Below, piece by piece: positions 6,601 through 53,672 of a stretch of DNA of 64,000 bases. The DNA comes from Cliona cf. orientalis (taxonomy: Eukaryota; Porifera; Demospongiae; Clionaida; Clionaidae), in contig OZ005700.1 in assembly GCA_963930775.1 (NCBI GenBank), positions 3,117,476-3,181,475 on the forward strand. Direction: 5' to 3'. A model generated the notes under the pieces. It was not told where the DNA came from and searched no databases. It was given only the letters and a program-made list of their open reading frames with translations. A program made the position numbers and the translations under genes. The stretch's first letter is position 1. Each line of letters opens with the position of its first letter.

Positions 6601-9600
6601 CCTCACCTGCAAGGCAGATTTGGATAGTTAGCTAACCATCGTTTATGTGTCATTAATTTTACTATTGACTTACAAAGTGAATTGCGATGTTGAATCTGGT
6701 AACTGATGTAACTACAGAATGTTCACTGCTAGACACATCTGCATAGCCTGTATTAATACTGTCATTGCTGCAAGAAAAAATTTAATCAGTTGCAGCATCA
6801 TTGGTGTCAAGTGTAGTGTATAACGTACCTAAACTTCCAAATTGGCCAATCGTAGAGAAATGTATCATTAAATGCTAGTGTTGCATCAGATGACACCCAA
6901 GAGCAAGTGCCGGGGTGAGAGATGAACAGAGACGAGCCTAGTACAGCCATGTTCCGTTCAAATGATACTGACACCTGTATATTATAATAATAACAATACA
7001 CTGATGTTTGCTAGCTACCTGTTTACTTTTCTATCCTCCTTATCTCACACACTCACACTCACACTACCAATGCAACACACAATTATTATGAGGTGTGTGT
7101 GTAACTTTAGGGTAGAAGGTGATACTATATAGTGTCCATGGGCGCTTAAACATAACTCGGGATTTTGGCCAGTATGGGTGCTTACCTGGGATCAAAATTC
7201 GATATGTTTGTATAGAAGCTGCTAGAGTGGCCCCTTGAAATGCAATACATGGGCACTTACCCGGGAGTGTGCCTGGGACACTATGGTAGATGACTATGCA
7301 TGCATCATATTCAATTTGTTATTCAGTGCCTCCAAGTATATGGATTTGTCAGTATTTTTACTGAATTCTGATCATAAATACTGATAAACTTTCAAAAATA
7401 CTGAAAATTGGGAGGAATTCAGTGCATACATCATATATGGAGCTCTAGCTTTGTAAAATACTGAAAATGTATGCAAAATACCGAAAAATGGGAATGTTTA
7501 TGCTGAAAGACAGGAGAGCAGCTTGGAGGCACTGTTATCACTTTCCCCTATAGCTAATTCAGAAGAAGGCACTAGAAAATTAATATTGAGTTGAAAAAAG
7601 GAATGACCATGACATTGTATTATGCTGAAGTGCATACATTGCTCCATTGTCCTGGTGGCACTGAAGGCTCTTCATAGAGTACGAAACACTGAGGATTAAA
7701 GGCAAGCTGGCCAAATACCATCGAAGTGCTTTGTGAGTCTGCTAGCAAGCTAGCTCCAAACCTGAGGTAAGATTAGGTGACATGAAATTTACAGTATGAT
7801 ACAGATTGAATGGATTATCAACAGCTAAAATATAGCAGATGTAATAGACTTACGTCCCATTGTTTCCAATGAAAGTCATCTGCAAGCCAGTCATCAGCCT
7901 TACCTGCCCAAATGATATCAAATGCATTGCTACAGCACTATCACCTGTGTTGTTGATGAACTCGATCTGACCCTCGAAATCAACTAGAGAACTGATTATC
8001 TGCAAAATGTTATAATTATCATTGTAATGCAATCCACAGGCACAGGATATAATATACCCTTAGTGCATCTGATCCTCTGTTTCCAATGAACCGAGTAGTT
8101 CCTCCAAACAGCAGTGGAGTATAAGCAATAATGAATATCCCATTATTGCCATCATTTTCCTTAAAAGAACTGTTTGTTGAATAGAATACAATGTCATGGA
8201 ATACCAGTGTTGTGAAAATATAGTACATACATGGTACATTGCATACCATAATATTATTGTTATCAGATTATTAGATTGTACAAGAACACCCTGAAATGAA
8301 GATATCTCCCTTAATCAGGACATTGTGCATGCATGGTCCCAGCTACATGAAGATGTGACAAAATTATGATCCCTGAAATCAGGATACTGAAGCTGTCCCA
8401 AGGGTATCCAGAATAGAGGGGTTCCACTGTAGTTCCTTATTTGTACAGATACACAATGCCATAATATACGTAATGAAACATGTGACACAAGTATGCAGTA
8501 CATGAATTAATTATGGAAGACATTTACTTCAGATACGCTGAAAACACCCTTACCAATCAATAAATTCATATCTTATTATGGATCCTCTCCGTCCAAAATT
8601 GTTGAACTGATAGATGATGACAGCTGTCCCATACTCATTATCCGAGTTGACACCACGGTTGTCGATAAAGCTACATCGCTCACAGCGAACAAAGCTGGCT
8701 CCAATATTTGCTGCATAGTGTTTTAATCAAGCTTCAACAAAGCTAGATCTCCTCTATATAATATCTGAAACAAGGATACTTTTAGATCTGCTAATCTGGG
8801 GATTATCTGTAGTCCCATATTTGTGCACAAAGCTATAGGTATAAGACGAGGACACTGTGTCTATAATTGAAAGGTTCCACTGTAAATACTGGGTATTAAC
8901 TTACTTTCATAGGCTGGATTCACAAATAGTGCTCCTCCAGTTCTTCCCATGTTACCAGCAAAGAGACAGTCAGATATAAGTGTTGTGTGAGGCTTACTGG
9001 GAACACCGTTGGAGAAGAAAGTGTTGAGAACTGCCCCTCCACCTAGTCGAGCAAAATTATTGATGAAAGTGTTTTTCTGTAAGATGATCGTGTTCTGAGT
9101 TCCCTCTCCAAATACAACGAGGTAAACAGCACCTCCGAAGCTCCTGGCGTAATTGTTTTGGAAGTGATTGTCATAAATTTTTAATACTATGTCATGAAGG
9201 GATTCATTGTAGAACACTCCAAGGCTCCCTCCCCTTCCTGTGAATATTCGATTGAAGAATGCTGCATTTGTTGATCTCACTCTTCTATCGGCTGTTGCTC
9301 TATTGTTGGTAAAGTTACAGTGGCTCACTTCCGCCATGATCCGAGAGAATAAACTTGGAATGTTGTTGTAACCAATAGACACGGCTCCTGTGTTGCCTCG
9401 GAATGCGTATCGTGATATTCCAGTTCCACTATTATCTATGAAGATGGAATCACTAATTGAAATATTCCCGCTGTTATAAATGTCAAACACGGCCTCAGTG
9501 AAGTTTCTGTAATGATCAATAATTATTATGACATGAATAGCATTAAAAATAAAAGAATGTAGTTTACCTGAATGTAGTGTTGTGTATCCTGACAGCTGCT

Positions 9601-14324: not shown

Positions 14325-15514
14325 GAGCATTAAATTTTATCTGTATAATAATTATTGGCCAGGGTATATATGCTATGATAATAATTATTATTATGACAAA
14401 AGTAATATTACCCACTCTTACCTATGTAGCTAATATTAATGGCAATAGTCATTGAAAAAAGAATTAGTACTTCTTTCAATACATAATATTATGGATAATA
14501 ATATCTGATATATATATATAGCTAAGAAAATTTTTCTGATACTTTGTAAAAGCTTCTATCCAGCCTGCATCGCAGTCGAGCTCAATTGATTACTTTACCC
14601 CTTGTTGGTATTGTTAGCTTCATGATAAGCAAAATTAAGCTTCGTACTAGTGGCTAGATCTATACAGAGAGATTATGGGTCATCGGCAATTAATATAATG
14701 ATACTATCATCATGCAGCAGTCAACGTGGCTATCCAATTCATGGAACTGATACAAGAGCTTGAAAACTGATGAATACAGAGCAGTACAATGGTAGTAATT
14801 CATATGAATATTTTTTTGTTCAATTGCAAGGAAATACTTAGTACATGGAAAGACAGTGAATGCATGGCAATCACATGCAGTGATGTGGACGGTGGTACTA
14901 GTGTTATTACATGTGTATAATGCTTTACTTAACACTATAAGAAATACTATCATAATAATATTATATATATTATTATATATACCAGGGATATATTATATTA
15001 TGTTGGTCAATACATGTGTAATAGCTAGCTTTTTTCCACTAATTTTGCAACCTAAGTGCATACTAGAGTATAGTGCTGTAATTTGCACATTGGTGGTACA
15101 AGATCCAATTCTGATGTCCGCTAACTTCTGATCCTATGCATGCAGACTCTCATCTTGGAGGATCAGAATTAAGTGCACGTGGAAATTGCTTAAGATTCAT
15201 TTGTCACTCAGTATGTACATAAAAAATTATACTATAATATAATGCTATAAATCAGCTACTGCTTTATTATTAAGTTTATGCGGAGAAGTAAGCTAATAAA
15301 AGATTGATCACTATATTTAATATATAGAATCTGATAATATTTAGCATAAGAAAAATAATAGTGAATTCAAAACTTGTATACTGGCAATTATTATTACATC
15401 TACAGTCTGCAGACTATATAGCCTAGCCTAAGGAGCTCAAAATTACAGCAAATTCAGTTCATTTCTAGTTCAGATAGCCTGAATTGTATAGTCTACGCTG
15501 CGTTCTATTGTCCT
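14325..15514. other. Gene 3 3' flank and duplicated noncoding sequence (block 1)
   Basis: No gene seen. The stretch is AT-rich and recurs with small indels at 18496-19560, 25276-25590/26143-26640 and 26655-27530; its last part (about 15020 onward) recurs at 22484-22970. It is the upstream half of the duplication block that carries each Kunitz gene. Confidence 0.7.
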
Positions 15515-16043
15515 TCATGCACATTTCTTCATACATCCTTTATATGTCAAAAAACGATTTTTGTTTCCCTGACAGCCTCCATAGATGAACTGTTTGCAGT
15601 CACGTGCATCTACATTGTAGTACCACCTTTCAAGGTAAGCCCTACACGGACCTGTTACTGCTTGAAGATGACAGATATTGCACCCAACTTGAGCTATTTG
15701 AGCACAATCAGGCAGGCCAGCAAGACTACATGTACTATAATATAATTGCAAAAAATAATTCGTGTCTTTTGATCATATTGAAGAAACTCACCAAGTTCTT
15801 CCATCTTCGAATTCAATATAAGTTTCACCCGGCTTGTATGCATTCCCTTTGTAGTCGTAGCAAGTTGCTTCTGCATGGTATAGTATAGCTAACTGTTGTA
15901 TCATTGTACAGTAAGAGTTGATATTGCATTCATTTAGCAATATTATACTTACTTGCTACCTCTGCATCGTAGTTATCTGGACTTGCAGCTGGTGTCAGAG
16001 TGAAAAGTGCACCAAGTACAATCCCAACTGACAAAATCTTCAT
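15515..16043 (-). CDS. Kunitz gene K1: secreted Kunitz/BPTI-domain protein (126 aa)
   Basis: Three exons: 16043-15953, 15870-15792 and 15725-15515, with GT-AG introns and frame preserved throughout. Exon 1 encodes a signal peptide (MKILSVGIVLGALFTLTPAA) and a short linker. Exon 2 encodes a small module with a CYDYKGNAYKPGETYIEF motif, resembling the start of a VWC-like fold. Exon 3 encodes a linker with extra Cys and a complete Kunitz domain whose six Cys have the classical spacing 8-15-7-12-3, with RWYYN, FIYGGC and KNRF hallmarks. The residue after the second Kunitz Cys is Arg (GPCRA), which in this family favours trypsin-like serine proteases. Expected to be secreted as a protease inhibitor; its target is unknown. 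Confidence 0.88.
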
Positions 16044-16429
16044 GTTCAGTATACAAGCAAGATGTAAGGAATTTGTTAGTGAAAAGATTAACTTGCAAGA
16101 CTCCGAGATGAATTCAATTCTAAGCTCCAATATTTAAACTAAGTGTATGCCTAAAAATGGTATTTTATTATAATAAATACTATGAATAATTATTATCAAA
16201 TGAGGAGTAGTGCAGTATATTCCAACAATAATAGTAGCAGCTACAGAGGGATTGAACTGTTCCATAATGCCAGTGTTTTCGGGAAAAAAGAAGATTTATA
16301 TGCAGTAGAGTTTGTTCTGGGGACCATGAGAGTGTTTTTATTTGAAATTCTGGTGTTGTAAGGGTTCTGCCGTATAGTAATAGGAGCTTCCGGAAAGTAT
16401 GTTTGCTTGTTTACTATTTTAGCGAGCTA

Positions 16430-17340
16430 GGTGACGCAAACTTGCATTGGAGCGTCTACTACTAAGTGATGGTATTTGTGCAGTTTCTAGTAGTCCATTG
16501 ACCATGATTTGGGACACATTCTAAGAGCGAACTTTTGCACATTTTCTAGCTCCTCAATTTCTCTTATTAAGCGGAAAGGATCCCATACCAGCGATGCGTA
16601 TTCCAGGTGGGGCCTGATTTTGGTCAGGTATAGTTTCAAGAGAGTATTTGAACTGGAGTGTTGATAAAGATTTCTATATAGCAGTCCAATTAGTTTCCTT
16701 GTTTTCTTGCATATTGCTGTGATATGAGGATGCCAGAAGAGAGTATTCGTGATGATTACACCAAGATAGTTATAGCTTGCCACTTGCACTAGCTTGGTGG
16801 AATTGAGGTATAACTGCGGAGGAGGTAAAGAGTTTGATCTCTTTCTCGAAATATACATTGTGCGACATTTTCCTTCATTAAAGTTAAGATATTTAGAGTC
16901 CAAAAATGATGAGATTGCACTAATATCCTCCTGTAATATTGCATAGTCATTTGGGGTTGTGATTATTCGGTATAGAGCAATGTCATCGGCAAACATGTTG
17001 ATTTCACTGCCAGGTGAGATGGTGGTAACAACATTATTAATTTTATATACATAATAAACAGCAAGGGACCTAATATACTTCCTTGTGGGACACCCGATAT
17101 AACTGGTAGTTTATTAGACAACCCTCCTTCAATTGCTACAACCTGAAATCTATCAGATAGGTAGTCTTTGAGCCATCTTATTAGGTATGGATTCAGATTT
17201 ACTTCTTCATGTTGTTGGATTAACGGAAGGTGTGGAACCTTATCGAAAGCTTTGCTTACATCAAAAAATACAACACACACTTCTTTTCCTTGATCGAGAG
17301 CACAAGACCAATCGTCAATTACTTTAATCGAGTTAAGTAT
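16430..17340 (-). mobile_element. LINE reverse-transcriptase remnant
   Basis: Two adjoining frames (17280-16963 and 16996-16487) encode the middle and end of a non-LTR reverse transcriptase: VFFDVSKAFDKVPH, GVPQGSILGPLLF, the FADDIALY catalytic box and YLGVIITNTLFWHPHI. They belong to the CR1/Jockey-like LINE group. A frameshift near 17040 splits them, and endonuclease and 5' parts are missing, so the copy is dead. It interrupts duplication block 1 between K1 and the receptor-gene tail fragment. Confidence 0.85.
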
Positions 17341-17399
17341 AATGATTGAGAATTTTCGGAAATAATATAATGTAATAATTATTATTCTTGATAAACTGT

Positions 17400-18075
17400 A
17401 TCATAAACTGCTTAGGCTTTAATTCATCACTAATTATTCCTAAATTCAGTTCAGTTGTTGTCACTGCATTGTTCGCGTCAGGAGCGCATGATAAAATATT
17501 ATAATGAAGATGTATTGTTGTAGCTCTCGATCCGAAGTTGAGACATCTTTCAAGTCATTCTCTTTCTCCTGTGTCTAGAAATAATCAGTGAAACAAGTAA
17601 TAGCAAGTCTTAGAGTGCCTTGGTGACAGTAAATCCAAACCTTTGCGCCCATTATAATTAACTCACCTAACAAATAAGATGAATTTGAAAGTTGCTAATA
17701 TAATCAAGAGAAGCAATGGCAAGTAATAGAATGGTAGCAGAATTGCGGTCAAAAGAGACACCCCAGAGAGGTCATCTTTGCAGACGTCAGTCCCATTCAC
17801 AGTTTGCACTTCGGATGGTGGGAATATATTATAAGCATCTCTGAGGAAACTGGTTGACTCAAGAGCAAGCAAAAAAATAAAGATCATTTGAATAATTATC
17901 TCAACGATATTAGCCGTTAGACTCTTGTACGCCATGCACAACTAGTATTATGCACAAAACAAGCAGTGGTGGAATCTACACGTAAAAGGAATCAATAGAT
18001 AGGACCATTGAGAGAGTATAAATATCACTCATGCACCGCACGAATTTCTTGGAAATGGAATGATAAAGATGCGAT
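17400..18075 (-). pseudogene. Broken 3' end of a gene 4-type receptor (exons 19-21)
   Basis: The 17400-17580 stretch matches the last exon of gene 4. Positions 17667-17935 match exon 20 (LLPFYYLPLLLLI, FKFILFVR), and 18041-18070 keep only a piece of exon 19. Exon 20 is damaged where gene 4 reads QPYKSLTANIVE: about 16 bp are missing after CTTGTAC, shifting the frame. At about 18076 the homology stops and jumps to opposite-strand receptor sequence. Confidence 0.82.
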
Positions 18076-18500
18076 AGACAAGGTACATTGTGGGTCACCA
18101 AATGCATTTTGAGTCATATAGTTCTACAGGAATTCTCTGTGGAGAGTGTCGAGATGGGATGGGAGTCAGTGCCCTGCTCAACAACTGTGTGATATGTCCC
18201 AGTGCTCAAGGACTACTTATTTTGGCTCTCAGTATATATGTCAATTGGATCAATTTAATTTTGTTCGCTTCACATAGTTATTGCAGATGAATAAGCCTTC
18301 GTTGCAATTATCGTTGTGCATTTGTATATCACTTCCTCAATGGATCCATCCTTTCATCTTCTATATTCAATTAATATGAAACTAGAGCTAAGAGACCCAA
18401 GGGTGAGGGAGAAAATGTAGACCTTGTTGAATCAACTTATGAAGTGGCACATACAACTGTAGGTTTGAGAGAGCCTTTGCTTGAAAATTAAGTTTTATCT
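18076..18500 (+). pseudogene. Chimeric fragment: inverted receptor exons 13-14 joined to gene 3 tail
   Basis: 18090-18230 reads on the plus strand as the Cys-rich exon (GILCGECRDGMGVSALLNNC) of the gene 4 type, followed to about 18370 by degraded exon 14. At about 18384 it runs directly into a copy of the gene 3 C-terminus (VGLREPLLEN, 18460-18490) in the same orientation. Both parts are inverted or displaced relative to their source genes, and no complete frame survives. The same junction occurs at 25140-25190, so it predates the duplication. Confidence 0.8.
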
Positions 18501-19559
18501 GTACTATAATTAATAATGGATAGGGTATACTATGATACTATAATGTTATCCATGCACTCTAAGACTTCCCTATGTACCTAATTTTAGTCATTGAGTCATT
18601 AGTACTTCTATCAATCTGAAAACAGGGATTATATATATTAGGGTATATATAATGCATGTCTGATATAGGTCTCAAGAAAATATTTCCTGATACTATGACA
18701 TTGTAAGTTTATGACTACATGCACCCATCCTGCATCACAATCGAGCTCAGTTGCTTACTTTACCCCTTATTGGTATTATAAAATTAAGTTTTGTACTATA
18801 GCAGCTAGGTCTACAGCGAGATTATGGGTTATCCACAACTAATTAATGATACTATCATCAGTAGTCAATGTGGTTATCCAATTCATGGAACCGATACAGG
18901 AGCTTGAAAAATGATGAATGCAGAGCAGTACAATGGTGGTAACTCATATGTATCTTTTTGTGTTCAATTGCAAGGAAATACTTACATGGAAAGACGGTGA
19001 ATGCATGACAATCACAGTGATCTGACGGCCGGTGGTACTAGTGTTATTATGTGTAATGCTTTACTTTACTGTAAGAAATGCTATCATATGTCATGTCGGT
19101 CAATGCAAATAATTGCTTTGTTCCAATTAATTTTATGGTCCGGAGAGGGAGCTATTGCTTGAAATTCCTAGTATAATGAGCTACTTCATAAGTTTGGCTA
19201 ATTTCAGATCTCGTGCAGACTCTCATCTTGAATTAAGTACATGTGGAAATTGCTTCGTTTAATATGATCTTCTATCACTCAGTATATGTACGTACTGTTA
19301 TACTATAATTGTAATGCTATGAATCAGCTACTGCTTTATTATTAAATTTATGAAAACTAAGCTAACTTGATCACCATAGAATCTGATAATATATAGCACA
19401 AGAAAACAGTGACTTCCGAAACTTGTATACTACAGTCTCCATGCAGACTATAGCCTAAGGAGCTCAAAATTACAGCAATAATATTCAGTTCATTTCTAGC
19501 TCAGATAGCCGACTAAGCATTTTACAGCTTGAATTATTATTTTTAGTCTACACTACTTT
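18501..19559. other. Noncoding part of duplication block 2
   Basis: Homologous to 14330-15514, 26160-26640 and 26860-27530. No gene seen. Copies differ by many substitutions and by 4-6 bp insertions listed in the findings. Confidence 0.65.
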
Positions 19560-20055
19560 TTACTGTCCTTCGTATTTTTTCATACAATCTTTGTATGTCA
19601 TAAAGCAATTTTGGTTTCCCTCACATCCTCTATAGATGAACTGTTCGCAGTCGCGTACATCCACATTGTAGTACCACCTAATTACAGCATATTTACTACA
19701 TGGACCCATTACTGTTTGAAGATGAAAGATATTGCACCCATCTTGAGCTACTTGAGCACAATCAGGCAGGCCATGCATCAAGACTACATTGCAAGAAAAA
19801 AAAAACTGATTAATTAATTCGCATCTTTTCATAATGAAGAAACTCACCAAGTTCTGCCACCTTTGAATTCAATGTATGTTGTTTCGCCCACAGTTTTAAT
19901 AGTATCATAGTATAGTAATCAGTTGATATTGCATTAATTTTATACTTACTTGCTTCCTCTGCATTGTGGTTAAGTTTTGTTTCTGCTTCAAGATTTGCAG
20001 CTGGTGTCAGAGTGATCAGTGCACCGAGCACAATCCCAACTGACAAAATCTTCAT
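19560..20055 (-). pseudogene. Kunitz gene K2: degenerate or two-exon Kunitz copy
   Basis: Exon 1 (20055-19950) encodes an intact signal peptide. The exon 2 counterpart near 19848-19900 has lost its 5' half, including its acceptor and the CYDYKG motif. Exon 3 (upper end about 19787) carries a 4-bp TGCA insertion at 19774-19777. Splicing exon 1 straight to exon 3 restores the frame, so a shorter two-exon protein is possible. The Kunitz domain has lost its first Cys (CNIF) and its last (MKKYEG), the pair that normally bond to each other, and FIYGGC has become FIYRGC. A new Cys replaces Arg in NRF. Inhibitor function is doubtful. Confidence 0.72.
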
Positions 20056-20690
20056 TGTTTAGTAGTATACAAGCAAGATGTATGCTAGTAGAAAGAATAA
20101 CTCTGGGATGAATTGTATCTTAATTAATTAAATTAGACTCCAATATATATTTATATAACCCAACTTGATTTACCTCAGTTGCACTTCACGGTTTGGCATG
20201 CTCCAGATTCACCATCTGGTCACAAAAAGGTATACAGTAGTTACGTAATTTGAGCCTTGACCATCAATCATACTGAATACAGGGTGCGTAACAACATTTG
20301 AAGTGCAGTTCCTTAAAATTAATTTCAAGTCACTTAAAGTCTAGAGTTTCAACTGACCACCAAGCATTTGAAGTAGCCATAACAATCTGGAAACCACTTA
20401 TCCTCTGATGATCAATGGCGCCAGATCCAATTACACAGGAATGGTCAAATGTGGCCCCTGGGGCCGTTTGTGGCCCCTGACAGTAGTTGCGCTATGCATG
20501 ACATTGCATATTCAAAATCAGTGGTGGCCATTGTATTGCAATCAGTGGTGGGTGGGGATCACTCGCGCTTGGGAACTAGTTTATTCCTCAAGTTTCTGTA
20601 TTTGAGTGGAAAATTGGGTCATATATTAGTTTGTTTATAAGCCTTTGTTACTTAATTTGTTTGATGTGCCTAGTCGGCATATCCATAGGT
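20056..20690. other. K2 5' flank and spacer
   Basis: 20056-20500 is nearly identical to 28034-28490 upstream of K4, apart from 4-bp insertions, so it is part of the duplicated block. Homology ends at about 20510. I see no gene between there and the Penelope-like element. Confidence 0.6.
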
Positions 20691-22480
20691 ATTCGTGTCT
20701 CTTTAACCATAGTTTTTTATTAGTTTCTTGGGATGGTGCCTGGGCTAACATTTGAAATCTAATTCTCTTGTATTCATGATCCTCTTATTTTATGTGATTT
20801 ATCATAGGTCCCTTGTCTAGGTGCTCGACTATTCTGCTTATGATTTGCCTGGTGGTGTAGCCCACGTACTGTGCTAGCAACAGCGTCTGATTGGATTTCT
20901 AAAGTTCTGAAGACTGCTTTTAAATATGCTTTGTGGGTATTCGGCGGGTAGTGGCTGTGGGGTGTGTGCAGATTAGCTAGGGTTTAGTTGTGTATTTCCC
21001 GATTGGGTGGGTTCATCTATGGATTTTAGTTTGGCTCGGACTAGCTTATGTTTCAGGGAGGGATGATTTCTATATGCAATTACTGGGGGTTCTGGGAAAA
21101 TATGGTTTAGTGTTTTATTATTTTTGATTAATTTCCAGTGTTTTTTGAGTATTTGTTTGAGTCTATGGGCATCGTCACAGAAGTGTGTGATGAAAACTAA
21201 TTTCTTTTTTTTGTCTTTAGGTTTATTTCTGAAAAGAATCTGGTGTCTTTGGTTAAATTTAACCGCATTTAGATGTGGTAAGACTTGTTTATGTTTATAT
21301 CCTCTTTGTAACAATCTATTTATCAGCCTTTGTTTCATATTTTGGAATCCTTTCTCATTTGAATTTATTCTCAGATATCGATTGGCTTCACCTTTGCTTA
21401 TGGCATTAGGGGGTGATACGAGGTTGCATGGACATATAGCTAATTGTTTGTTGGTTGGTTTTATGTGAGTACGTACGTCTAGGAGTTGATTGAGGCTAAA
21501 TCTATTACCTTTATATAAGGTTACATCCAAGAATGTGAGTTCAGTTTCGCTTACGTCATACGTGAATTTGATTGTGCGGTGGATTTGGTTAATGGTATTC
21601 ATATATGTTGTGAATTCGGATGCGGATCCAGTCCAGACGACAAAATGTCATCAATGAACCATTTCCATAGCATTATGTGTGGTTTGCCAAGTTCTCTAAG
21701 TTTTTCTTCTAACTTTCCCATAAATAGATTTGCATACGCAGGTGCCATTTTGGTACCCATAGCTGTTCCTTGGATTTGTAAGTAGTAATTGTTGTTGAAT
21801 TCGAACACATTATTTTTCAGGACTATCTCAATTAGTTCGGTTAAGATTTCTGGTATGATCGGGAATAATTATCTGGATTGTGTTGCAGAAAATGTAATAC
21901 GCTTTGTTTATCATCTTCGTGTGGTATGTTAGTATATAGTGAGGATATGTCTATGGATGCTAGTATGCAGTTTTGTGGTAATTTAGTGGTTTCTATTAGT
22001 TTAAGGAACTCTGTCGTATCCTTCAGATAGGATGGGAGGGTTTTTACATGCGGTTGTAACCACTTGTCAACAAATTGGGATATGGGTTCAGTAATGCTAT
22101 TACAGCTTGATATGATTGGTCTTATTCCCATTGGGTTTTTATGGATTTTTTTCAAAAAATATAGTCTTGAAGTGCGTGTATGTTTAGGTGGCTTGCAAAA
22201 ATCAAACCATGTTTGCTTTAAGAAACCATTTCTCTTTAATGCACCGAGTTAGTCTATGATTTGTTCTTTTAGTCTGAGTGATATATCTTCGCAAAGGGGT
22301 TTGTATACGTTAGGGTCATTTAGGTGCGACATTGCATTTTTAATATATTCGTCTCTCTCCTCAACCACTATTGTGGAACCTTTGTCTGCTTTGTTGATTA
22401 CTATGTGTGGATTGTTTATTAAGTCTCTAAGTGCTAGTCTCTCTTTTCTGGTTAGATTATCCTATTTGTTTTGTTTGTAT
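20690..22480 (-). mobile_element. Penelope-like retroelement, 5'-truncated and frameshifted
   Basis: Read on the minus strand from 22480: an N-terminal VINKADKGSTIVVEE motif, KIHKNPMGIRPIIS, SIDISSLYTNIPH, QGTAMGTKMAPAYANLFMG and the catalytic FIDDIL, then THFCDDAHRLKQIL and PPVIAYRNHPSLKH. These are the ordered blocks of Penelope-type reverse transcriptases. Downstream, about 20870-20800 reads QYVGYTTRQIISRIVEHL, the GIY-YIG endonuclease signature of this class. The frame is broken near 21820-21850, so it is inactive. It sits exactly between block 2 and the start of block 3. Confidence 0.9.
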
Positions 22481-22483
22481 AAT

Positions 22484-22974
22484 AGCTAGCTTTTTTCCAC
22501 TAATTTTGCAACCTAAGTGCATACTAGAGTATAGCGCTGTAATTTGCACATTGGTGGTACAAGATCCAATTCTGATGTCTGCTAACTTCTGATCCTATGC
22601 ATGCAGACTCTCATCTTGGAGGATCAGAATTAAGTGCATGTGGAAATTGCTTAAGATTCATTTGTCACTCAGTATGTACATAAAAAATTATACTATAATG
22701 TAATGCTATAAATCAGCTACTGCTTTATTATTTAATTTATGCGGAGAAGTAAGCTAATAAAAGATTGATCACTATATTATTATATAGAATCTGATAATAT
22801 TTAGCATAAGAAAAATAATAGTGAATTCAAAACTTGTATACTGGCAATTATTATTATATCTACAGTCTGCAGACTATATAGCCTAGCCTAAGGAGCTCAA
22901 AATTACAGCAAATTCAGTTCATTTCTAGTTCAGATAGCCTGAATTGTATAGTCTACGCTGCGTTCTATTGTCCT
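22484..22974. other. Start of duplication block 3, near-identical to 15020-15514
   Basis: From the Penelope-like element boundary the sequence is about 97% identical by eye to the K1 downstream flank. It holds no gene. The abrupt start coincides with the truncated end of the retroelement. Confidence 0.7.
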
Positions 22975-23512
22975 TCATGCACATTTCTTCATACATCCTT
23001 TATATGTCAAAAAACGATTTTTGTTTCCCTGACAGCCTCCATAGATGAACTGTTTGCAGTCACGTGCATCTACATCGTAGTACCACCTTTCAAGGTAAGC
23101 CCTACACGGACCTGTTACTGCTTGAAGATGACAGATATTGCACCCATCTTGAGCTATTTGAGCACAATCAGGCAGGCCAGCAAGACTACATGTACTATAA
23201 TAAAATTGCAAAAAATAATTCGTGTCTTTTGATCATATTGAAGAAACTCACCAAGTTCTTCCACCTTTGAATTCAATATAAGTTTCACCCGGCTTGTATG
23301 CATTCCCTTTGTAGTCGTAGCAAGTTGCTTCTGCATACATGGTATAGTAGCTAACTGTTGTATCATTGTATAGTAAGAGTTGATATTACATTCATTTAGC
23401 AATACTTACTTGCTACCTCTGCATTGTAGTTATCTGCTTCAATTAGACTTGCAGCTGATGTCAGAGTGAGTGCACCAATTGCAAGTACAATCCCAACTGA
23501 CAAAATCTTCAT
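22975..23512 (-). CDS. Kunitz gene K3: secreted Kunitz protein (130 aa)
   Basis: Exons 23512-23410, 23330-23252 and 23185-22975 mirror K1, and the frame is intact. The mature regions differ from K1 by only a few residues, and all six Kunitz Cys, the GPCRA contact site and FIYGGC are kept. The signal peptide carries two extra residues (VLAIGAL versus VLGAL) caused by a 6-bp TTGCAA insertion at 23479-23484. The high identity with K1, including introns and flanks, shows recent duplication. Expected role is the same secreted inhibitor. Confidence 0.88.
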
Positions 23513-23829
23513 GTTCAGTATACAAGCAATTGAGATGTAAGGAATTTATTAGTGAAAAGATTAACTTGCAAGACTCTGAGATGATCGAATTCAATTCTAA
23601 GCTCCAACAGTATAACTTAACTCACAACATCCTCCTTTATATAGTGTGAAAAACTTCCTCTCACTTATTCACTGTCACAGGAAGTTAATTACTTGAGTGT
23701 ACTAGCTAGCTCACCTGAATTGTGAATTGTATTGCATTGCTTTAGCTCTAGTGAACTACAATGTTACAATACAGCAGCCCTTCTCCTGCATCACAACGGT
23801 TACTTTATATATGTCTGGAGACACTATAG

Positions 23830-24605
23830 AGCTAAGTATAATGATTGAGAATTTTCGGAAATAATACAATGTAATTATTCTTGATAAACTGTATCATAAA
23901 CTGCTTAGCTTGACATATTCATCACTAATTATTCCTAAATTTTTGTCACTGCATTATTCGCGTCAGGAGCGCATGATAAAAATATTGTTCGTGTGCATTG
24001 TTGTAGCTCTCCGAAGTTGAGACATCTTTCGAGCCATTCTCTTTCTCCTGTATCTAGAAATAATCAGTGAAACAAGTAACAGCAAATCTTAGAGTGCCTT
24101 GGTGACAGTAAATTCAAACCTTAATTTGCGCCCATTATAATTAATTTTCTTTACTCACCTAACAAATAAGATGAATTTGGAAGCTGCTAACATAATCAAA
24201 AGAAGCAATGGCAAGTAATAGAATGGTAGCAGAATTGCCATCAAAAGAGACACCCCAGACAGGTCATCTTCGCAGACATCAGTCCCATTCACAGTTTGCA
24301 CTTCGGATGGTGGGAATATATTATAAGCATCTCTGAGGAAACTGGTTGACTCAAGAACAAGCAATAAAATAGAATTTCTATCTCAACGATGTTAGCCGTT
24401 AGACTCTTGTACGGCTGTATGTATCCATACACAACTTAGTCTAGTATTATGCACAAAATAACCAGTGGTGGAATCTGCATGTAGAAGGAATCAATAGATA
24501 GGACCATTGAGAGAGTATAAACATCACTCATGCACTGCATGAATTCAATGGAATGATAAAGAGAATGAAGAGGAATCTTCTGGCTAGCTCCATAGCCGAC
24601 CACCG
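23830..24605 (-). pseudogene. Broken 3' end of a gene 4-type receptor, second copy
   Basis: Last-exon similarity runs 23880-24055, exon 20 runs 24170-24480 (FYYLPLLLLIMLA, SKFILFVR), and a piece of exon 19 lies at 24540-24600 (LARRFLFIL region). There are deletions in the CATTTG/AATAATT part of exon 20. It parallels 17400-18075 in block 1 and ends at an unrelated junction near 24606. Confidence 0.8.
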
Positions 24606-24769
24606 CCTTGTGGTAGCTGAGTAAGTAACAGAAGTGCAGGCTTGCACACGTTAGTGAGCCACATCAACTGTTTTAATACCCAGGTACATACACATTAATG
24701 GGCACAAAGCATTCTAAATACATGAACACACGTTACAATAACATTGAAATGCATGAAATCACAATATAT
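24606..24769. other. Spacer between oppositely oriented receptor fragments
   Basis: About 160 bp with no similarity I can place, joining a minus-strand exon 19 fragment to a plus-strand exon 12 fragment. Confidence 0.4.
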
Positions 24770-25280
24770 TATCCTTGTCCACCTGGCTACTGCAAGTGTA
24801 GTTAGACCACAAGTCTAGGGCCCTCCAGCTGTGCCTTTGCACAGTGTCGACCCTGATACATGCGACAGACAAGGTAGATATAGAAACATTGTGGGTCATC
24901 AAATGCACTTTGAGTCATGTATTTCTACAGCCTAGGAATTCTCTGTGGAGAGTGTCGAGATGGGATGGGAGTCAGTGCCCTGCTCAACAACTGTGTGATA
25001 TGTCCCAGTGCTCAAGGACTACTTATTTTGGCTCTCAGTTTATCAATTGGATCAATTTAGTCTCATTCGCTTCACATAGTTATTGCAGATGTTATTGTCG
25101 TTGTGGATTTACCACTTCCTCAATGGATCCATCGATTCCTTTCATCTTCTACATTCAAGGAATGTGAAACTAGAGCTAAGAGACCCAAGGGTGAGGGAGA
25201 AAATGTAGACCTTGTTGAAATGATCAACTTACGAAGTATTGTAGGTTTGAGAGAGCCTTTGCTTGAAAATTAAGTTTTAT
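24770..25280 (+). pseudogene. Chimeric fragment: inverted receptor exons 12-14 joined to gene 3 tail, second copy
   Basis: 24775-24880 matches the Cys-rich exon 12 (CPPGYCKCS, GPSSCAFA) but has an internal stop and a deletion. 24935-25040 matches exon 13, and 25080-25165 matches exon 14. At about 25180 it joins a gene 3 C-terminal copy that ends with REPLLEN at 25250-25272. It is an older sibling of 18076-18500 and retains more of exon 12. Confidence 0.8.
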
Positions 25281-25593
25281 CTGTACTATAATTATTGGAC
25301 AGGGTATACTATGATACTATAATTATGATTAATGTTATCCACTCTTCCCTATGTAGTACCTAATTTTAGTCATTGAGTCATTAGTGCTTCTATCAATCTG
25401 ATTATTATTAGGGTCTATAATAATATTATCTGAGCTCAATTGCTTACTTTTATACCCCTTGTTGGTATTATAATAATTAAATTTTAGCTACATGATAAGT
25501 AAAATTAAGCTTTGTACTAGCAGCTAGGTCTACAGAGAGATTATGGTTTATCCACAACTAATGATACTATCATCAATATCAGTAGTCGATGTA

Positions 25594-25875
25594 CAGTGGC
25601 GTAAGAAGATGTTTTTGAACAGGGGGGCTGTAAATACAATTGTGTGCAAAACGCGAAAAAAAATTTTTGGACTACATGTACACGATACGCCTTCAAACCA
25701 TCCCCATTATTATGCTAATTTGGCTGTAAAGTAGACTTTACATCACAAATCTGAAGATGCCAACTTAAGACCTATAGTAGAATAAAATTATCTTCCGGCT
25801 AGATTTAGGCCCCTTGGCTGACAAGAGGGGGGGCTACAGCCCCCCAGCCCCCCTGCTTCTGATCTTACGCCAGTG
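25594..25875. mobile_element. Short nonautonomous element with inverted ends, copy 1
   Basis: Ends are CAGTGGCGTAAGAAG on the left and a near-complement ending CTTACGCCAGTG on the right, with a G-rich/C-rich foldback near the right end (GGGGGGGCTACAGCCCCCC). It encodes no protein. The CAGTGGCG end resembles hAT-type termini, but the flanking duplication is not clearly 8 bp, so the superfamily is uncertain. Confidence 0.7.
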
Positions 25876-25876
25876 A

Positions 25877-26142
25877 CAGTGGCGTAAGAAGATGTTTTTG
25901 AACAGGGGGGCTGTAAATAAAATTGTGTGCAAAAATTTTTGGACTACACGATACGCCTTCAAACCATCCCCATTATTATGCTAATTTGGCTGTAAAGTAG
26001 ACTTTATATCACAAATCTGAAGATGCCAACTTAAGGCCTATAGTAGAATAAAATTATCTTCCGGCTAGATTTAGGCCCCTTGGCTGACAAGAGGGGGTGG
26101 GGGGGCTACAGCCCCCCAGCCCCCCTGCTTCTTACACCAGTG
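25877..26142. mobile_element. Short nonautonomous element with inverted ends, copy 2
   Basis: Tandem second copy, one base after copy 1 and over 90% identical by eye. It lacks the ACATGT at 25674-25679 and an 11-bp A-rich stretch found in copy 1. The pair is flanked by ATGTA on both sides, while 26850 shows a single ATGTA in the uninterrupted paralogous sequence. Confidence 0.7.
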
Positions 26143-26654
26143 ATGTAGCTAGTTATCCACTTCACGGAACCGATACAGGAGCTTGAAAAATGATGAATGC
26201 AGAGCAGTACAATGGTGGTAACTCATACGTACCTTTTTGTGTTCAATTGCAAGGAAATACTTACATGGAAAGACGGTGAATGCATGACAATCACAGTGAT
26301 CTGACGGCCGGTGGTACTAGGTAGTGTTATTATGTGTAATGCTTTACTTTACTGTAAGAAATGCTATCATATGTCATATCGGTCAATGCAAATAATTGCT
26401 TTTGTTCCAATTAATTTTGAAATCTTAGGGACGGAGAGGGAGCTATTGCTTGAAATTCCTAGTACAATGAGCTACTCCATTAGTTTGGCTAATTTCAGAT
26501 CCCATGCAACTCAAGTGCATGTGGAAATTGCTTCATTAATGATCTTCTATCACTCAGTATGTACGTACCATTATACTATAATAATTGTAATGCTATAAAT
26601 TAGCTACTGCTTTATTATTAAGTTTATGAAAAGTACGGTAAGCTAACTTGATCA

Positions 26655-27534
26655 CCATCAATCTGATTATTATTAGGGTCTATAATATCTGAGCTCAATT
26701 GCTTACTTTTATACCCCTTGCTGGTATTATAATAATTAAATTTTAGCTACATGATAAGTAAAATTAAGCTTTGTACTAGCAGCTAGGTCTACAGAGAGAT
26801 TATGGTTTATCCACAACTAATGATACTATCATCAGTAGTCAATGTAGTTATCCACTTCACGGAACCGATACAGGAGCTTGAAAAATGATGAATGCAGAGC
26901 AGTACAATGGTGGTAACTCATACGTACGTTTTTGTGTTCAACTGCAAGGAAATACTTACATGGAAACTTTAAGATGGTGAATGCATGACAATCACAGTGA
27001 TCTGACGGCCGGTGGTACTACGTAGTGTTATTACATGTAATGCTTTACTTTACTGTAAGAAATGCTATCATATGTCATATCGGTCAATGCAAATAATTGC
27101 TTTTGTTCCTGGAATTAATTTTGAAATCTTAGGGTCCGGAGAGGGAGCTATTGCTTGAAATTCCTAGTACAATGAGCTACTCCATTAGTTTGGCTAACTT
27201 CAGATCCCATGTGACTCAAGTGCATGTGGAAATTACATTCATTTATGATCTTCTATCACTCAGTATGTACGTACCGTTATACTATAATAATTGTAATGCT
27301 ATAAATTAGCTACTGCTTTATTATTAAGTTTATGAAAAGTACGGTAAGCTAACTTGATCACCATAGAATCTGATAATATATAGCACAAGAAAACAGTGAC
27401 TTCAAACTTGTATACTACAGTCTCCAGACTATAGCCTAAGGAGCTCAAAATTACAGCAATATTCAGTTCATTTCTATAGCTCAGATAGCTGACTAAGCAT
27501 TTTACAGCTTGAATTATTTAGTCTACACTACTTT
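26655..27534. repeat. Local direct duplication, second copy
   Basis: Second copy of the block 4 upstream sequence leading into K4. No gene seen. It provides the element-free reference for 25594-26142. Confidence 0.65.
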
Positions 27535-28033
27535 TTACTGTCCTTCGCATCTTTTCATACAATCATTGTATGTCATAAAGCGATTTTGGTTTCCCTCATA
27601 GCCTCCATAAATGAACTGCTTACATGCAGTCGCGTACATCCACATTGTAGTACCACCTAATTACAGCATATTTACTACATGGACCCATTACTGTTTGAAG
27701 ATGACAGATATTGCACCCATCTTGAGCTATTTGAGCACAATCAGGCAGGCCATGCATCAAGACTACATTGCAAGAAAAAAAACTGGTTAATTAATTCGCA
27801 TCTTTTCACAATGAAGAAACTCACCAAGTTCTGCCACCTTTGAATTCAATATTATGTTGTTTCGCCCACAGTTATAATAGTATCATTGTATAGTAACCAG
27901 TTGATATCGCATTAATTTTATACTTACTTACTTCCTCTGCATTGTGGTTAAGTTTCATTTCTGCTTCAAGATTTGCAGCTGGTGTCAGAGTGAGCAGTGC
28001 ACCGAGCACAATCCCAACTGACAAAATCTTCAT
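27535..28033 (-). pseudogene. Kunitz gene K4: pseudogene
   Basis: Exon 1 begins at ATG 28033 and still encodes the signal peptide. Exon 2 is truncated as in K2. Exon 3 has the TGCA insertion shared with K2 (27753-27756) and a further 4-bp ACAT insertion at 27622-27625 that puts a stop codon directly after the third Kunitz Cys. Beyond it, the fourth Cys is replaced by Tyr (GGYEGN), although the fifth and sixth remain. The domain cannot be made intact. K2 and K4 are sister copies by shared lesions. Confidence 0.8.
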
Positions 28034-28489
28034 TGTTTAGTAGTAGCTATACAAGCAAGATGTATGCTAGTAGAAAGAATAACTCCGAGATGAACTGTAT
28101 CTTAATTAATTAAATTATATATTTATATAACCCAACTTGATTTACCTCAGTTGCACTTCACGGTTTGGCATGCTCCAGATTCACCATCTGGTCACAAAAA
28201 GGTATACAGTAGCTAGTTACGTAATTTGAGCCTTGACCATCAATCATACTGAATACAGGGTACGTAACAACATTTGAAGTGCAGTTCCTTAAAATTAATT
28301 TCAAGTCACTTAAAGTCTAGAGTTTCAACTGACCACCAAGCATTTGAAGCAGCCATAACAACCTGGAAACCACTTTTCCTCTGATGATCAAATGGCGCCA
28401 GATCCAATTACACAGGAATGGTCAAATGTGGCCCCTGGGGCCGTTTGTGGCCCCTGACAGTAGTTGCGCTATGCATGACATTGCATATT

Positions 28490-29772: not shown

Positions 29773-30345
29773 TTATTTATTTTTTACTGTCCTTCGCATC
29801 TTTAAAGTCATACATTCATTGTATGTCATAAAGCGATTTTGGTTTCCCTCACAGCCTCCATAGATGAACTGTTTGCAGTCACGTACATCCACATTGTAGT
29901 ACCACCTCATTACAGCATATTTGCTACATGGACCCATTACTGCTTGAAGATGACAGATATTGCACCCATCTTGAGCTATTTGAGCACAACCAGGCAGGCC
30001 AGCAAGACTACACGTACTATATTATAGCAAGAAAAAATTATATTAATTCATGTCTTTTAAAAGAAACTCACCAAATTCTGCCACCTTTGAATTCAATATA
30101 GGTTTCACCCGGCTTGTATGCATTCCCTTTGTAGTCGTAGCAAGTTGCTTCTGCATACATGGTATAGTAGCTAACTGTTGTATCATTGTATAGTAAGAGT
30201 TGATATTGCATTAATTTAGCAATAACTTACTTGACAATGTAACCTCCGTATTGTTGTTAAACTTTGTTCCTGCTTCAAGACTTGCAGCTAGTGTCAGAGT
30301 GATATTTAGTGCACCAAGCATAATCCCAACTGACAAAAGTTTCAT
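29773..30345 (-). CDS. Kunitz gene K5: secreted Kunitz-like protein with altered C-terminus (142 aa)
   Basis: Exons 30345-30231, 30150-30072 and 30007-29773 keep frame and splice sites. The signal peptide is MKLLSVGIMLGALNITLTLA. The exon 2 module is intact. The Kunitz domain keeps Cys 1-5, RWYYN and FIYGGC, but a 4-bp AAAG insertion at 29804-29807 shifts the frame just before the sixth Cys, so the protein ends KMRRTVKNK instead. Without Cys 6 the first disulfide cannot form, so inhibitor activity is uncertain. The residue after Cys 2 is Ser (GPCSK), unlike the Arg of K1 and K3. Confidence 0.72.
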
Positions 30346-30695: not shown

Positions 30696-37491
<6,796 letters not shown>

Positions 37492-51180: not shown

Positions 51181-51815
51181 TGTTTAATGAGGTCAGTTCT
51201 ACCCAGATCATGTACACCCTGTGAGAAGAGATTAGAATACTCACAAAGTAAATCATACACCTGCTTTTTGTGGTCAGGCATTAAACATGACACACTCCTC
51301 TTGTACAGATCCTGCAGGTGGCTAGGCAGAATGGTAGTGGTTGCTGCACAGGAGGAAGTGTTACGCTCTGGACCATTAGACAGACTGCAATCTCTGTCCC
51401 TTGCTTGGCTTCCTTGGATAATCAGTCAGATTCAATAAGTGTAGTGGCAACTCCTCTTGATCTAGCTAGCTACATCCACCAAAGACTGAAAGTTCTCCCC
51501 ACCAACAGCCCATCAAGTGGTCTGGAGCTGGCCGCAGACTGAGCAGGTTCCGAAATTCCCTATTTGATTTCACTAGGACGCTCATGAGCAGCTGAATAAC
51601 ACAAATCCCCTAGCTCATCCAGTTCTCTCAGCTGTCTCAACATATTAAACAGAATCAGAGTCAGCTGAGACTGATCACTCTGACATTAAGATTATACCAC
51701 GCCCACAGGATGTGGACTGCAATTATCGGACAATTGTCACGCATGTGGTATATAGCAGTCTGCTAATATTAATCATTAGCTATTAACTGATCCTCCACCT
51801 AGCCTATAAATGCGC
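51181..51815. other. Flank of the gypsy remnant, nothing recognised
   Basis: Probably the upstream part of the same retroelement by position, but I cannot identify protease or gag motifs in any frame. Confidence 0.3.
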
Positions 51816-52634
51816 CTTTGTAAACACGTTGATTGACTCGATCGCGAGACGTTAGGAAAGAATGGCTATTCGAATGCCCGCCTACTCCACTATTAATTTC
51901 AATAATGCGAGGAGAGTTAGCTACTGTACAGTTTCTGTTGCTCCTTGGTGTGCCTCTTGCAAACGCGTTGGTTGACGCGATCGCGAGACGTTTGGAATAA
52001 GTGGTTATTCAAGCGCCCACTGACTCCACAAATAATTCTATTAATGCGTGAACGACGAGGGGAGTCCAGTTCCCCCGCTCGGTTGCTCCTTGGTGCGTCT
52101 CTTGCAAACGCGTTGGTTGACGCGATCGCGAGAAGTTTGGAATAAGTGGTCATTCAAGTGCCTATTGACTCCACAAATAATTCTATTAATGCGTGAACGA
52201 CGAGGGGAGGCCAGTTCCCCCGTTCGGTTGCTCCTTGGTGTGCCTCTTGCAAACGCGTTGGTTGACGCGATCGCGAGACGTTTGGAATAAGTGGCTATTC
52301 AAGCGCCCACTGACTCCACAAATAATTCTATTAATGCGTGAACGACGTGGGGAGTCCAGTTCCTCCGCTCGATTGCTCCTTGGTGCGTCTCTTGCAAACG
52401 CGTTGGTTGACGCGATCGCGAGACGTTTGGAATAAGTGGTTATTCAAGCGCCCACTGACACCACGAATGGTCAAGAATAATTCTATTAATGCGTGAACGA
52501 CGAGGGGAGTCCAGTTCCCTCGTTTGGTTGCTCCTTGGTGTGCCTCTTGCAAACGCGTAAGTTGACGTGATCGCGAGATGTTTGGAATAAGTGGTTATCC
52601 AAGCCCCCACTGACTCCACGAATAATTCTATTAA
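51816..52634. repeat. 145-bp satellite array, about six units
   Basis: The phrase ATCGCGAGA recurs with spacing of about 139, 145, 145, 145 and 155 bp (51842, 51981, 52126, 52271, 52416, 52571). Units contain AACGCGTTGGTTGACGCG and AATTCTATTAATGCGTGAAC. The array is interrupted at its right end by the TTAA-flanked element, and a last scrap of unit lies at 53651-53672. Frames across it are repeat artefacts, not genes. Confidence 0.92.
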
Positions 52635-53650: not shown

Positions 53651-53672
53651 TTAATGCGTGAACGACAAGGGG

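What the first reader, a model, noticed from the sequence alone, without database searches (positions are those of the whole stretch)
14700..28220. Recurrent 4-6 bp insertions that create palindromes distinguish the duplicated blocks
Aligning paralogous blocks by eye gives a repeated lesion type: clean insertions of 4 or 6 bp that are palindromic or complete a palindrome. TGCA: 14713-14716 and 14876-14879 (absent at 18856 and 19016), 19774-19777, 27753-27756. AGCT/CTAG: 26147-26150, 28045-28048, 28211-28214 (absent in the 26836, 20065 and 20238 regions). GATC: 23583-23586 (absent near 16110). AATATT: 25422-25427. ACATGT: 25674-25679. TTGCAA: 23479-23484. An AAAG insertion at 29804-29807 makes CTTTAAAG; an ATTG insertion near 23529 makes CAATTG. 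Several hit Kunitz coding exons. A random 4-mer is palindromic only 1 time in 16, though sliding alignment raises that. Hairpin-opening repair (P-nucleotide-like, as in hAT/Transib excision or V(D)J ends) or a snap-back polymerase error would leave such marks. The same words (TAGCTA, CATGCATG) are abundant across the window.
Basis: partly seen in the sequence, partly recalled or inferred. Interest (0 to 1): 0.78.

Follow-up and report, generated by a model that had tools for sequence, protein, structure and literature searches.

The report
Short insertions that copy themselves backwards
In this animal-type genome, about half of the recent 4- and 6-letter DNA insertions examined are small palindromes, many made by repeating the neighbouring two or three letters backwards and then forwards again; insertions in flies and primates are mostly plain repeats, so an unusual mutation process may be at work here.

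Summary
All 13 listed words are present. At 12 of 13 sites (11 events) a paralogous copy lacks exactly that insertion; 26147 lies on a block boundary and cannot be tested. Three events are firmly polarised as insertions. In paralogs of 264 kb around the window, 26 of 48 4-bp and 13 of 43 6-bp indels are palindromic after sliding; 5.6 and 2.8 are expected with sliding matched. In three dispersed repeats (126 sequences), low-frequency insertions are palindromic in 19 of 38 (4 bp), 10 of 20 (6 bp) and 2 of 4 (8 bp); insertions outnumber deletions 38:6 and 20:1.

Two forms dominate. One is a micro inverted triplication, p to p.p'.p (CA to CATGCA, ACT to ACTAGTACT), with varied local p: 9 of 20 6-bp repeat insertions, nulls about 0.4%. 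The other is TA to TA.x.x'.TA, notably TACATGTA, which Tc1/mariner-like footprints might also explain. Best reading: self-templated inverted copying of 2-3 nt at a break or stalled end, then rejoining. The enzyme route is inferred.

The parts
14711..14716 (.). CA.TG.CA: 4-bp palindromic indel (p.p'.p, p=CA)
   Evidence: absent in the 18.8-kb and 26.8-kb copies; polarity suggested only
14874..14879 (.). CA.TG.CA: 4-bp indel (p=CA)
   Evidence: absent in 3 related copies; polarity suggested only
19772..19777 (.). CA.TG.CA near the 5' end of a Kunitz-coding frame; shared with 27753
   Evidence: two sister copies have it, three lack it
27751..27756 (.). same event as 19774 in the sister block
23476..23484 (.). 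CAA.TTG.CAA: 6-bp in-frame insertion in the signal-peptide exon of a Kunitz gene (minus strand)
   Evidence: absent in the sister copy and 3 others; translation compared with three copies
23529..23532 (.). ATTG insertion making CAATTG (p.p' with a partial third copy)
   Evidence: absent in the sister copy and 2 others
23583..23588 (.). GA.TC.GA: 4-bp insertion
   Evidence: absent in the sister copy at 16.1 kb and in the 30.4-kb copy
24121..24126 (.).
   Evidence: absent at 17642 and 30884
17527..17532 (.).
   Evidence: absent at 24010 and 30788
24529..24534 (.).
   Evidence: absent at 31290
25421..25428 (.). TA.ATAT.TA: 6-bp indel (TA.x.x'.TA form)
   Evidence: absent in the 26.66-kb copy; polarity unknown
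25673..25680 (.). TACATGTA: 6-bp indel
   Evidence: absent in the 25.9-kb copy; polarity unknown
27019..27024 (.). TA.CG.TA: 4-bp indel
   Evidence: absent at 14899 and 19039; a TAGG insertion at the same place at 26318
28044..28049 (.). TA.GC.TA: 4-bp indel
   Evidence: absent in the 20.0-kb copy; polarity unknown
28210..28216 (.). TAGCTAG: 4-bp indel (AG.CT.AG)
   Evidence: absent in the 20.2-kb copy; polarity unknown
29804..29807 (.). AAAG indel making CTTT.AAAG (p.p' without the third copy), at the end of a Kunitz frame
   Evidence: absent cleanly in the 27.5-kb and 19.6-kb copies, less cleanly in two more; altered C-terminus

Best explanation
This genome has a germline mutation process that makes short insertions by self-templated inverted copying. 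A 2-3 nt stretch p at a broken, nicked or stalled end is copied backwards (p'), the end is rejoined at or near the start of p, and p is copied again, leaving p.p'.p: a palindromic insertion of 4 or 6 bp flanked by a 2-3 bp direct repeat, in effect a micro inverted triplication. A second form at the self-complementary site TA leaves TA.x.x'.TA. SHOWN: the excess, insertion polarity in repeat copies, presence in three repeat families spread over many contigs and in the window's paralogs, varied p. INFERRED: that one process makes both forms, and the route. I favour a short-staggered break whose ends receive palindromic (P-nucleotide-like or snap-back) extension before end joining, because most inverted copies are 2-3 nt, abut p without a spacer and leave p duplicated; I give this route about 45%.
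For: Repeat copies against family consensus (126 sequences, 53,713 aligned bases): palindromic 19/38 4-bp, 10/20 6-bp, 2/4 8-bp low-frequency insertions; three other parameter sets give 17/33, 19/37, 19/34 and 8/15, 10/20, 7/14. Insertions against deletions 38:6 at 4 bp, 20:1 at 6 bp. Slide-matched expectations 4.1 and 1.3; at slides of 2-3 bp 11 of 13 4-bp events are palindromic. Form p.p'.p, tandem cases excluded: 7/40 4-bp and 9/20 6-bp repeat insertions, nulls at most 1.1% and 0.4%. Controls with the middle mirrored or complemented: 6 inverted against 1 and 2 at 4 bp; 9 against 0 and 1 at 6 bp. Sixteen different p in 25 events. Paralogs: 26/48 and 13/43. Some insertions are shared by two or more copies, so they are inherited and not read errors. 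Inverted copies are not in excess in 7-12 bp paralog indels (14% against 13%, n=114), which points to a small fixed geometry. Ku-domain exons on two contigs and pol-X palm exons on two contigs exist, so classical end joining is plausible.
Against: No molecular intermediate is seen. Standing p.p'.p words are little above mirror and complement controls (927 against 762 and 633 at |p|=2; 304 against 239 and 337 at |p|=3; 20 against 16 and 28 at |p|=4), less than simple accumulation would give. In paralogs only 2/43 6-bp indels are p.p'.p; four of the five TA forms there are TACATGTA. Family M2 alone is weak (2/5 and 0/2). The hold-out family M4 gave only two 4-bp insertions, both palindromic, and no 6-bp ones. 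Longer inverted copies do occur in repeats: a 12-bp insertion in L121, and 5 of 8 insertions of 10-30 bp have an inverted match of 5 or more (null 29%), which suits template switching. In the window itself only three events are firmly polarised.
Confidence: 0.66

Rival explanations
1. Double template switch at a replication fork: the nascent strand switches to the complementary strand at the end of p, copies p backwards, switches back and copies p again; a miniature of iterative template switching or of small inverted triplications.
For: Same order of parts as inverted triplication. A 12-bp insertion in L121 has a 9-nt inverted match to its flank. Reverse-strand templates are reported in primates.
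Against: Mostly 2-3 nt with no spacer; great-ape switches have a median fragment of 12 and small inverted triplications have inverted parts from 20 bp and spacers near 30 bp, though both methods are poor at the shortest events. No inverted excess at 7-12 bp in paralogs.
Confidence: 0.3
2. Footprints of DNA transposons: TA.x.x'.TA left by Tc1/mariner-type excision, p.p'.p by hairpin-forming elements.
For: TA.x.x'.TA is the shape of Tc1/mariner footprints with 1-4 bp terminal fragments. TACATGTA is in strong excess, 110 against 8-11. Two elements with ends TACAGTGGA...TCCACTGTA, i.e. TA then CA...TG, lie in the 264 kb, except that the second reads TTCCACTGTA (646 and 687 bp). Ac/Ds footprints carry P-nucleotides. 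M1 and M2 ends read TA-CCGTA.
Against: p and x vary; no constant target-duplication length. Pairs TACAGTG...CACTGTA within 3 kb are no commoner than the reversed order (15 against 20), so such elements look few here. TACCGGTA, expected of M1/M2, occurs 3 times in 264 kb (0.5 expected). 31 events in 53.7 kb of repeat copies would need very many insert-and-leave cycles.
Confidence: 0.16
3. Ordinary slippage or deletion in a genome already rich in palindromic words such as CATGCA and TAGCTA.
For: Palindromic words are enriched (6-mers 5274 against 4449, 8-mers 1692 against 1171 under order-3 Markov). Six of ten TA-form 4-bp paralog indels are TATATA-type. 3/6 4-bp deletions in repeats are palindromic, two of them in tandem runs. 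Deletion nulls rise with sliding, to 16% at slide 4 and 24% in the window alone.
Against: Slide-matched expectations stay far below observation: 4.1 against 19, 1.3 against 10, 5.6 against 26, 2.8 against 13. Insertions outnumber deletions at 4 and 6 bp; 13/38 and 10/20 palindromic cases are non-tandem.
Confidence: 0.05
4. Alignment or assembly artefact.
For: Short gaps can be placed in several ways.
Against: Sliding handled explicitly; four parameter sets agree; some insertions shared by two or more copies; seen in M1 and M3 strongly and in window paralogs.
Confidence: 0.02

Closest known systems
Tandem-duplication insertions (flies, primates; PMC2374710, passages read)
   Same: short insertions templated by the adjacent sequence
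   Different: there 80-90% of short insertions are simple or complex tandem duplications; here 6/38 4-bp and 1/20 6-bp repeat insertions are simple tandem; complex tandem was not scored
Short-range template switch mutations (great apes; PMC7954356, passages read)
   Same: inverted copy of nearby sequence on the other strand
   Different: median inverted fragment 12 nt in their set; 2-3 nt and no spacer here
Small inverted triplications in FEN1/rad27 mutants (PMC13334657, abstract and passages read)
   Same: DUP-INV-DUP order
   Different: flanking duplications 7 bp to >10 kb, inverted part from 20 bp, spacer about 30 bp there
P-nucleotides at opened hairpins, Ac/Ds footprints (PMC5873905, passages read); V(D)J coding joins (recalled)
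   Same: a few palindromic nt copied from the end
   Different: no 8-bp target duplication at these sites; p duplicated exactly
Tc1/mariner (Stowaway) excision footprints (PMC1925063, passages read)
   Same: TA.x...x'.TA shape, x 1-4 nt
   Different: many different x; only two candidate donors with CA...TG ends seen, in 264 kb

Membership tests
Tandem-duplication insertion | insert can be slid by its full length (adjacent identical copy) | tested here: not met
   6/38 4-bp and 1/20 6-bp repeat insertions are tandem
Inverted triplication (small) | order p, p', p | tested here: met
   7/40 4-bp and 9/20 6-bp repeat insertions; nulls at most 1.1% and 0.4%
Inverted triplication (small) | spacer of about 30 bp, inverted part of 20 bp or more | tested here: not met
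   p and p' abut and are 2-3 nt in the class counted; reference values
Short-range template switch | insert matches the reverse strand nearby, with varied length and distance | tested here: inconclusive
   inverted match of 5 or more, 7-12 bp: paralogs 14% against 13% (n=114), repeats 29% against 14% (n=21); repeats 10-30 bp 62% against 29% (n=8)
Hairpin-opening P-nucleotide joins (hAT, RAG) | few palindromic nt templated by the end | tested here: met
   p' copies the adjacent 2-3 nt
Hairpin-opening P-nucleotide joins (hAT, RAG) | target duplication of fixed length at the site | tested here: not met
   16 different p of 2 or 3 nt in 25 events
Hairpin-opening P-nucleotide joins (hAT, RAG) | recombination signal or transposon ends, and a transposase or recombinase gene | not tested
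   not searched
Tc1/mariner footprint | TA duplication around terminal fragments | tested here: met
   TA.x.x'.TA forms 5/40 and 1/20 in repeats, 10/48 and 5/43 in paralogs; the class is defined by this shape
Tc1/mariner footprint | abundant donor element with matching ends | tested here: inconclusive
   two elements with TACAGTGGA ends in 264 kb; paired ends not in excess of the reversed order, 15 against 20; genome not scanned

The most novel reading that the evidence does not exclude
A lineage-specific germline repair or replication pathway generates micro inverted triplications (p to p.p'.p, |p| 2-3) as a main kind of 4-6 bp insertion, continually writing new short palindromes into the genome and perhaps seeding the palindromic-unit microsatellites (CATG, TAGC, TACATG) that fill it.
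Probability: 0.35. Interest if true: 0.78.

Novelty: new variant of a known kind. Interest (0 to 1): 0.62.

Why it matters
In flies and primates most short insertions are tandem duplications (passages of PMC2374710). A genome in which half of the 4- and 6-bp insertions examined are palindromic would be a distinct indel signature. It would offer a natural system for asking which polymerase or nuclease turns round at DNA ends, would matter for indel models in alignment and dating, and would give palindromic binding sites and palindromic microsatellites a mutational origin. The rows listed by the searches made here (20 of 180; 31: 12 of 12; 43: 20 of 43; 55: 6 of 6; 56: 11 of 11; 61: 12 of 39; 71: 15 of 710) showed no description of it; they cover open-licence papers only, and most were seen as listings.

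Tried and rejected
Rejected: deletion polarity and word abundance; a single transposon footprint for p.p'.p (varied p); a pure microsatellite account (non-tandem cases stay in excess); a strictly even-length rule (3- and 5-bp palindrome-creating indels also in excess in paralogs, 29% of 49 against at most 6% and 41% of 17 against at most 9%). Led nowhere: a general inverted-template search in 7-16 bp paralog indels; literature for the word TACATGTA (30 of 290 rows) and for palindromic microsatellites in sponges (8 rows); a passage of PMC10287916. Not obtained: polymerase theta domain (PF00476) and 18S rRNA; those requests did not complete, so neither polymerase theta nor the species was determined. 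My sponge guess is recall only.

Dropped before counting: repeat indels seen in more than 3 copies (among them a TATA insertion in 6 M1 copies, a TCGA one in 16 M2 copies, a CAGC one in 12 M3 copies), indels without clean 8-bp (repeats) or 10-bp (paralogs) flanks, paralog indels over 30 bp, HSPs under 150 bp or 75% identity. Counting rule: one search counts an event palindromic if any copy is (21/38 at 4 bp); searches use the first copy for repeats (19/38).


Full report
WHAT WAS CHECKED. Aligning each site to the surrounding 264 kb shows a copy lacking exactly the insertion at 12 of 13 sites, i.e. 11 events, because 19774 and 27753 are one event in two sister blocks; 26147 is at a block end and untestable. 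Polarity is firm for three: 23479, 23529 and 23583 are in the 22.5-kb block and absent in its 95%-identical sister at 15-16 kb and in other copies. For 14713, 14876, 19774/27753 and 29804 two to four copies lack the insertion, but from the identities these may be one lineage, so insertion is only suggested. Four events have one clean comparator.

CHANCE. Seventeen paralogous block pairs in the window gave 35 4-bp calls, 20 of them palindromic, but many are the same event seen in several pairs. Merged into events over the 264-kb stretch (442 events up to 30 bp), 26 of 48 4-bp, 13 of 43 6-bp and 1 of 17 8-bp indels are palindromic in some placement. Nulls cut from the same sequence give for 4 bp 8.4% (random insertion), 8.7% (deletion) and 10.7% (tandem duplication), and for 6 bp 3.1%, 3.3% and 5.0%; against the largest null the binomial probabilities are 1.5e-13 and 1.1e-7. 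Deletion nulls rise with the freedom to slide, to 16% (4 bp) and 15% (6 bp) at full slide; matched slide by slide the expectations are 5.6 and 2.8. In the window alone the 4-bp deletion null reaches 24% at full slide. 2-bp indels are 19/48 palindromic, mostly TA, against about 24% in the window null.

POLARITY IN REPEATS. Three short dispersed repeats found in the stretch were followed genome-wide: M1 (43 sequences), M2 (41), M3 (42), taken from the top 40 scored of 1204, 671 and 922 first-look candidates plus copies in the stretch. Each copy was aligned to its family consensus and events in at most three copies were kept. Insertions: 4 bp 38 (19 palindromic by the first-copy rule, 21 if any copy counts), 6 bp 20 (10), 8 bp 4 (2). 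Deletions: 4 bp 6 (3, two of them in tandem runs), 6 bp 1 (0), 8 bp 2 (0). At 1 bp the balance is the other way, 9 insertions to 35 deletions. By family, 4 bp: M1 7/15, M2 2/5, M3 10/18; 6 bp: 5/5, 0/2, 5/13. Three other settings of gap penalty and flank give 17/33, 19/37, 19/34 and 8/15, 10/20, 7/14. Slide-matched expectations are 4.1 and 1.3; at slides of 2 or 3 bp, 11 of 13 4-bp repeat insertions and 17 of 23 4-bp paralog indels are palindromic. The copies hold 2329 substitutions in 53,713 aligned bases against 31 palindromic 4-, 6- and 8-bp insertions.

HOLD-OUT. A prediction for a fourth family, M4 (42 sequences; 2705 candidates), was written in the notebook together with the search that listed its places and before any copy was fetched. 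It gave only two 4-bp insertions, both palindromic, no 6-bp ones, and no palindromic deletion among ten of 3 bp or more, of which four have even length. This agrees but is too small to weigh much.

STRUCTURE. Excluding tandem cases, 7 of 40 4-bp and 9 of 20 6-bp repeat insertions (M1-M4) have the exact form p.p'.p with p not self-complementary (CATGCA, AGCTAG, ACTAGTACT, TAGCTATAG, AAATTTAAA, AAGCTTAAG, TAATTATAA, GCGATCGCGA and others); nulls give at most 1.1% and 0.4%. Five of 40, one of 20 and one of four (8 bp) are TA.x.x'.TA (TAGCTA, TACGTA, TAAGCTTA and others); nulls at most 0.4% and 0.2% for 4 and 6 bp. In paralogs p.p'.p makes 7/48 and 2/43, TA.x.x'.TA 10/48 (six of TATATA type, where (TA)n slippage is not excluded) and 5/43, four of which are TACATGTA. 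The window's own 23479 is CAA.TTG.CAA; it is not among the 6-bp calls, another gap lying close by. Control forms with a mirrored or complemented middle: 1 and 2 at 4 bp against 6 inverted, 0 and 1 at 6 bp against 9. The 25 p.p'.p events of 4 and 6 bp use 16 different p (strand-collapsed), so p is set by the locus.

WHAT DOES NOT FIT NEATLY. Palindrome-creating indels are also in excess at 3 and 5 bp in paralogs (29% of 49 and 41% of 17 against at most 6% and 9%), with smaller numbers in repeats (25% of 12, 17% of 12), and at 12 bp in paralogs (56% of 9 against at most 24%); 7, 9, 10 and 11 bp show little or none there. Some window events are p.p' with no or a partial third copy (CTTT.AAAG at 29804; CAATTG at 23529). 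Longer inserts show no inverted-template excess in paralogs (7-12 bp 14% against 13%), but direct matches are in excess (32% against 18%), and repeats show some inverted excess (10-30 bp 5 of 8 against 29%), with a 12-bp insertion in L121 as the clearest case. Standing p.p'.p words are only slightly above controls, while TACATGTA is 110 against 8-11 expected and TACATGTACATGTA occurs 9184 times in the genome, so the TA class may have its own cause. Two elements of 646 and 687 bp with inverted ends starting TACAGTGGA lie in the 264 kb; their excision could leave TACATGTA, though paired ends are no commoner than the reversed order (15 against 20).

MECHANISM. Inferred: an end carrying p is extended with its own complement and joined so that p is repeated. 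Opening a hairpin 2-3 nt from its tip, or snap-back copying on both ends followed by pairing of p' with p, gives p.p'.p directly from a 2-3 nt staggered break (geometry recalled from V(D)J and Ac/Ds work; Ac/Ds passages). Classical end-joining parts are present as exons: Ku domain on C12 and C19, pol-X palm domain on C12 and C6, one of the C6 matches with a TAG inside. Polymerase theta was not determined. A double template switch gives the same product and cannot be excluded.

COMPARISON. In flies and primates 80-90% of short insertions are attributed to simple or complex tandem duplication, with a reverse-strand minority in primates (passages of PMC2374710). Great-ape template switches have a median inverted fragment of 12 (passages of PMC7954356). 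Small inverted triplications in FEN1-deficient cells have flanking duplications from 7 bp, inverted parts from 20 bp and spacers near 30 bp (abstract and passages of PMC13334657). Stowaway footprints keep 1-4 bp next to TA (passages of PMC1925063). The present case shares architecture with these but not size or share of insertions. No other animal genome was run through the same pipeline here, so this contrast rests on published figures.

SURROUNDINGS. The blocks carry Kunitz-type genes on the minus strand (recognised by eye from the cysteine pattern; the Pfam scan did not include them). TTGCAA adds two residues in frame to one signal peptide.

Noticed in passing
264 kb around the window; whole genome: TACATGTA occurs 110 times in 264 kb (8-11 expected), 78 of them outside (TACATG)n runs, the 40 printed having varied flanks; TACATGTACATGTA occurs 9184 times in the genome.
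   Followed up: partly
L005:3397-4042 and L007:2573-3259: Two elements of 646 and 687 bp with inverted ends starting TACAGTGGA, Tc1/mariner-like by their TA and CA...TG ends.
   Followed up: partly
L011:5518-5951; L005:755-1217; L010:718-1185; L022:6829-7149: Four abundant short dispersed repeats (1204, 671, 922, 2705 first-look candidates); the first two have TA-flanked ends CCGTA...TACGG.
   Followed up: partly
L006:5771-8832 (C12 about 3033245-3036307) and window about 52612-53654: A 1-kb element with ends TTAAGGTACCATTAAATTGCGTGGG, three head-to-tail copies plus single copies, 97-99% alike, so young.
   Followed up: no
window 16490-17110 (-): Reverse-transcriptase fragment (RVT_1, E 6.5e-5, below Pfam's cut-off) between the Kunitz blocks.
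   Followed up: no
window 2095-2793, 8864-9598, 36158-36874 (-), 58097-58903 (+): Four of ten ORFs scanned match the Chlam_PMP repeat over its cut-off, two of them with beta-helix hits below the cut-off.
   Followed up: no
window 27621-27624: A 4-bp TACA indel in a Kunitz exon; the open frame of that copy ends early compared with its paralogs.
   Followed up: partly
window 51811-52634: Tandem array with units of about 140 bp, 76-86% alike.
   Followed up: no
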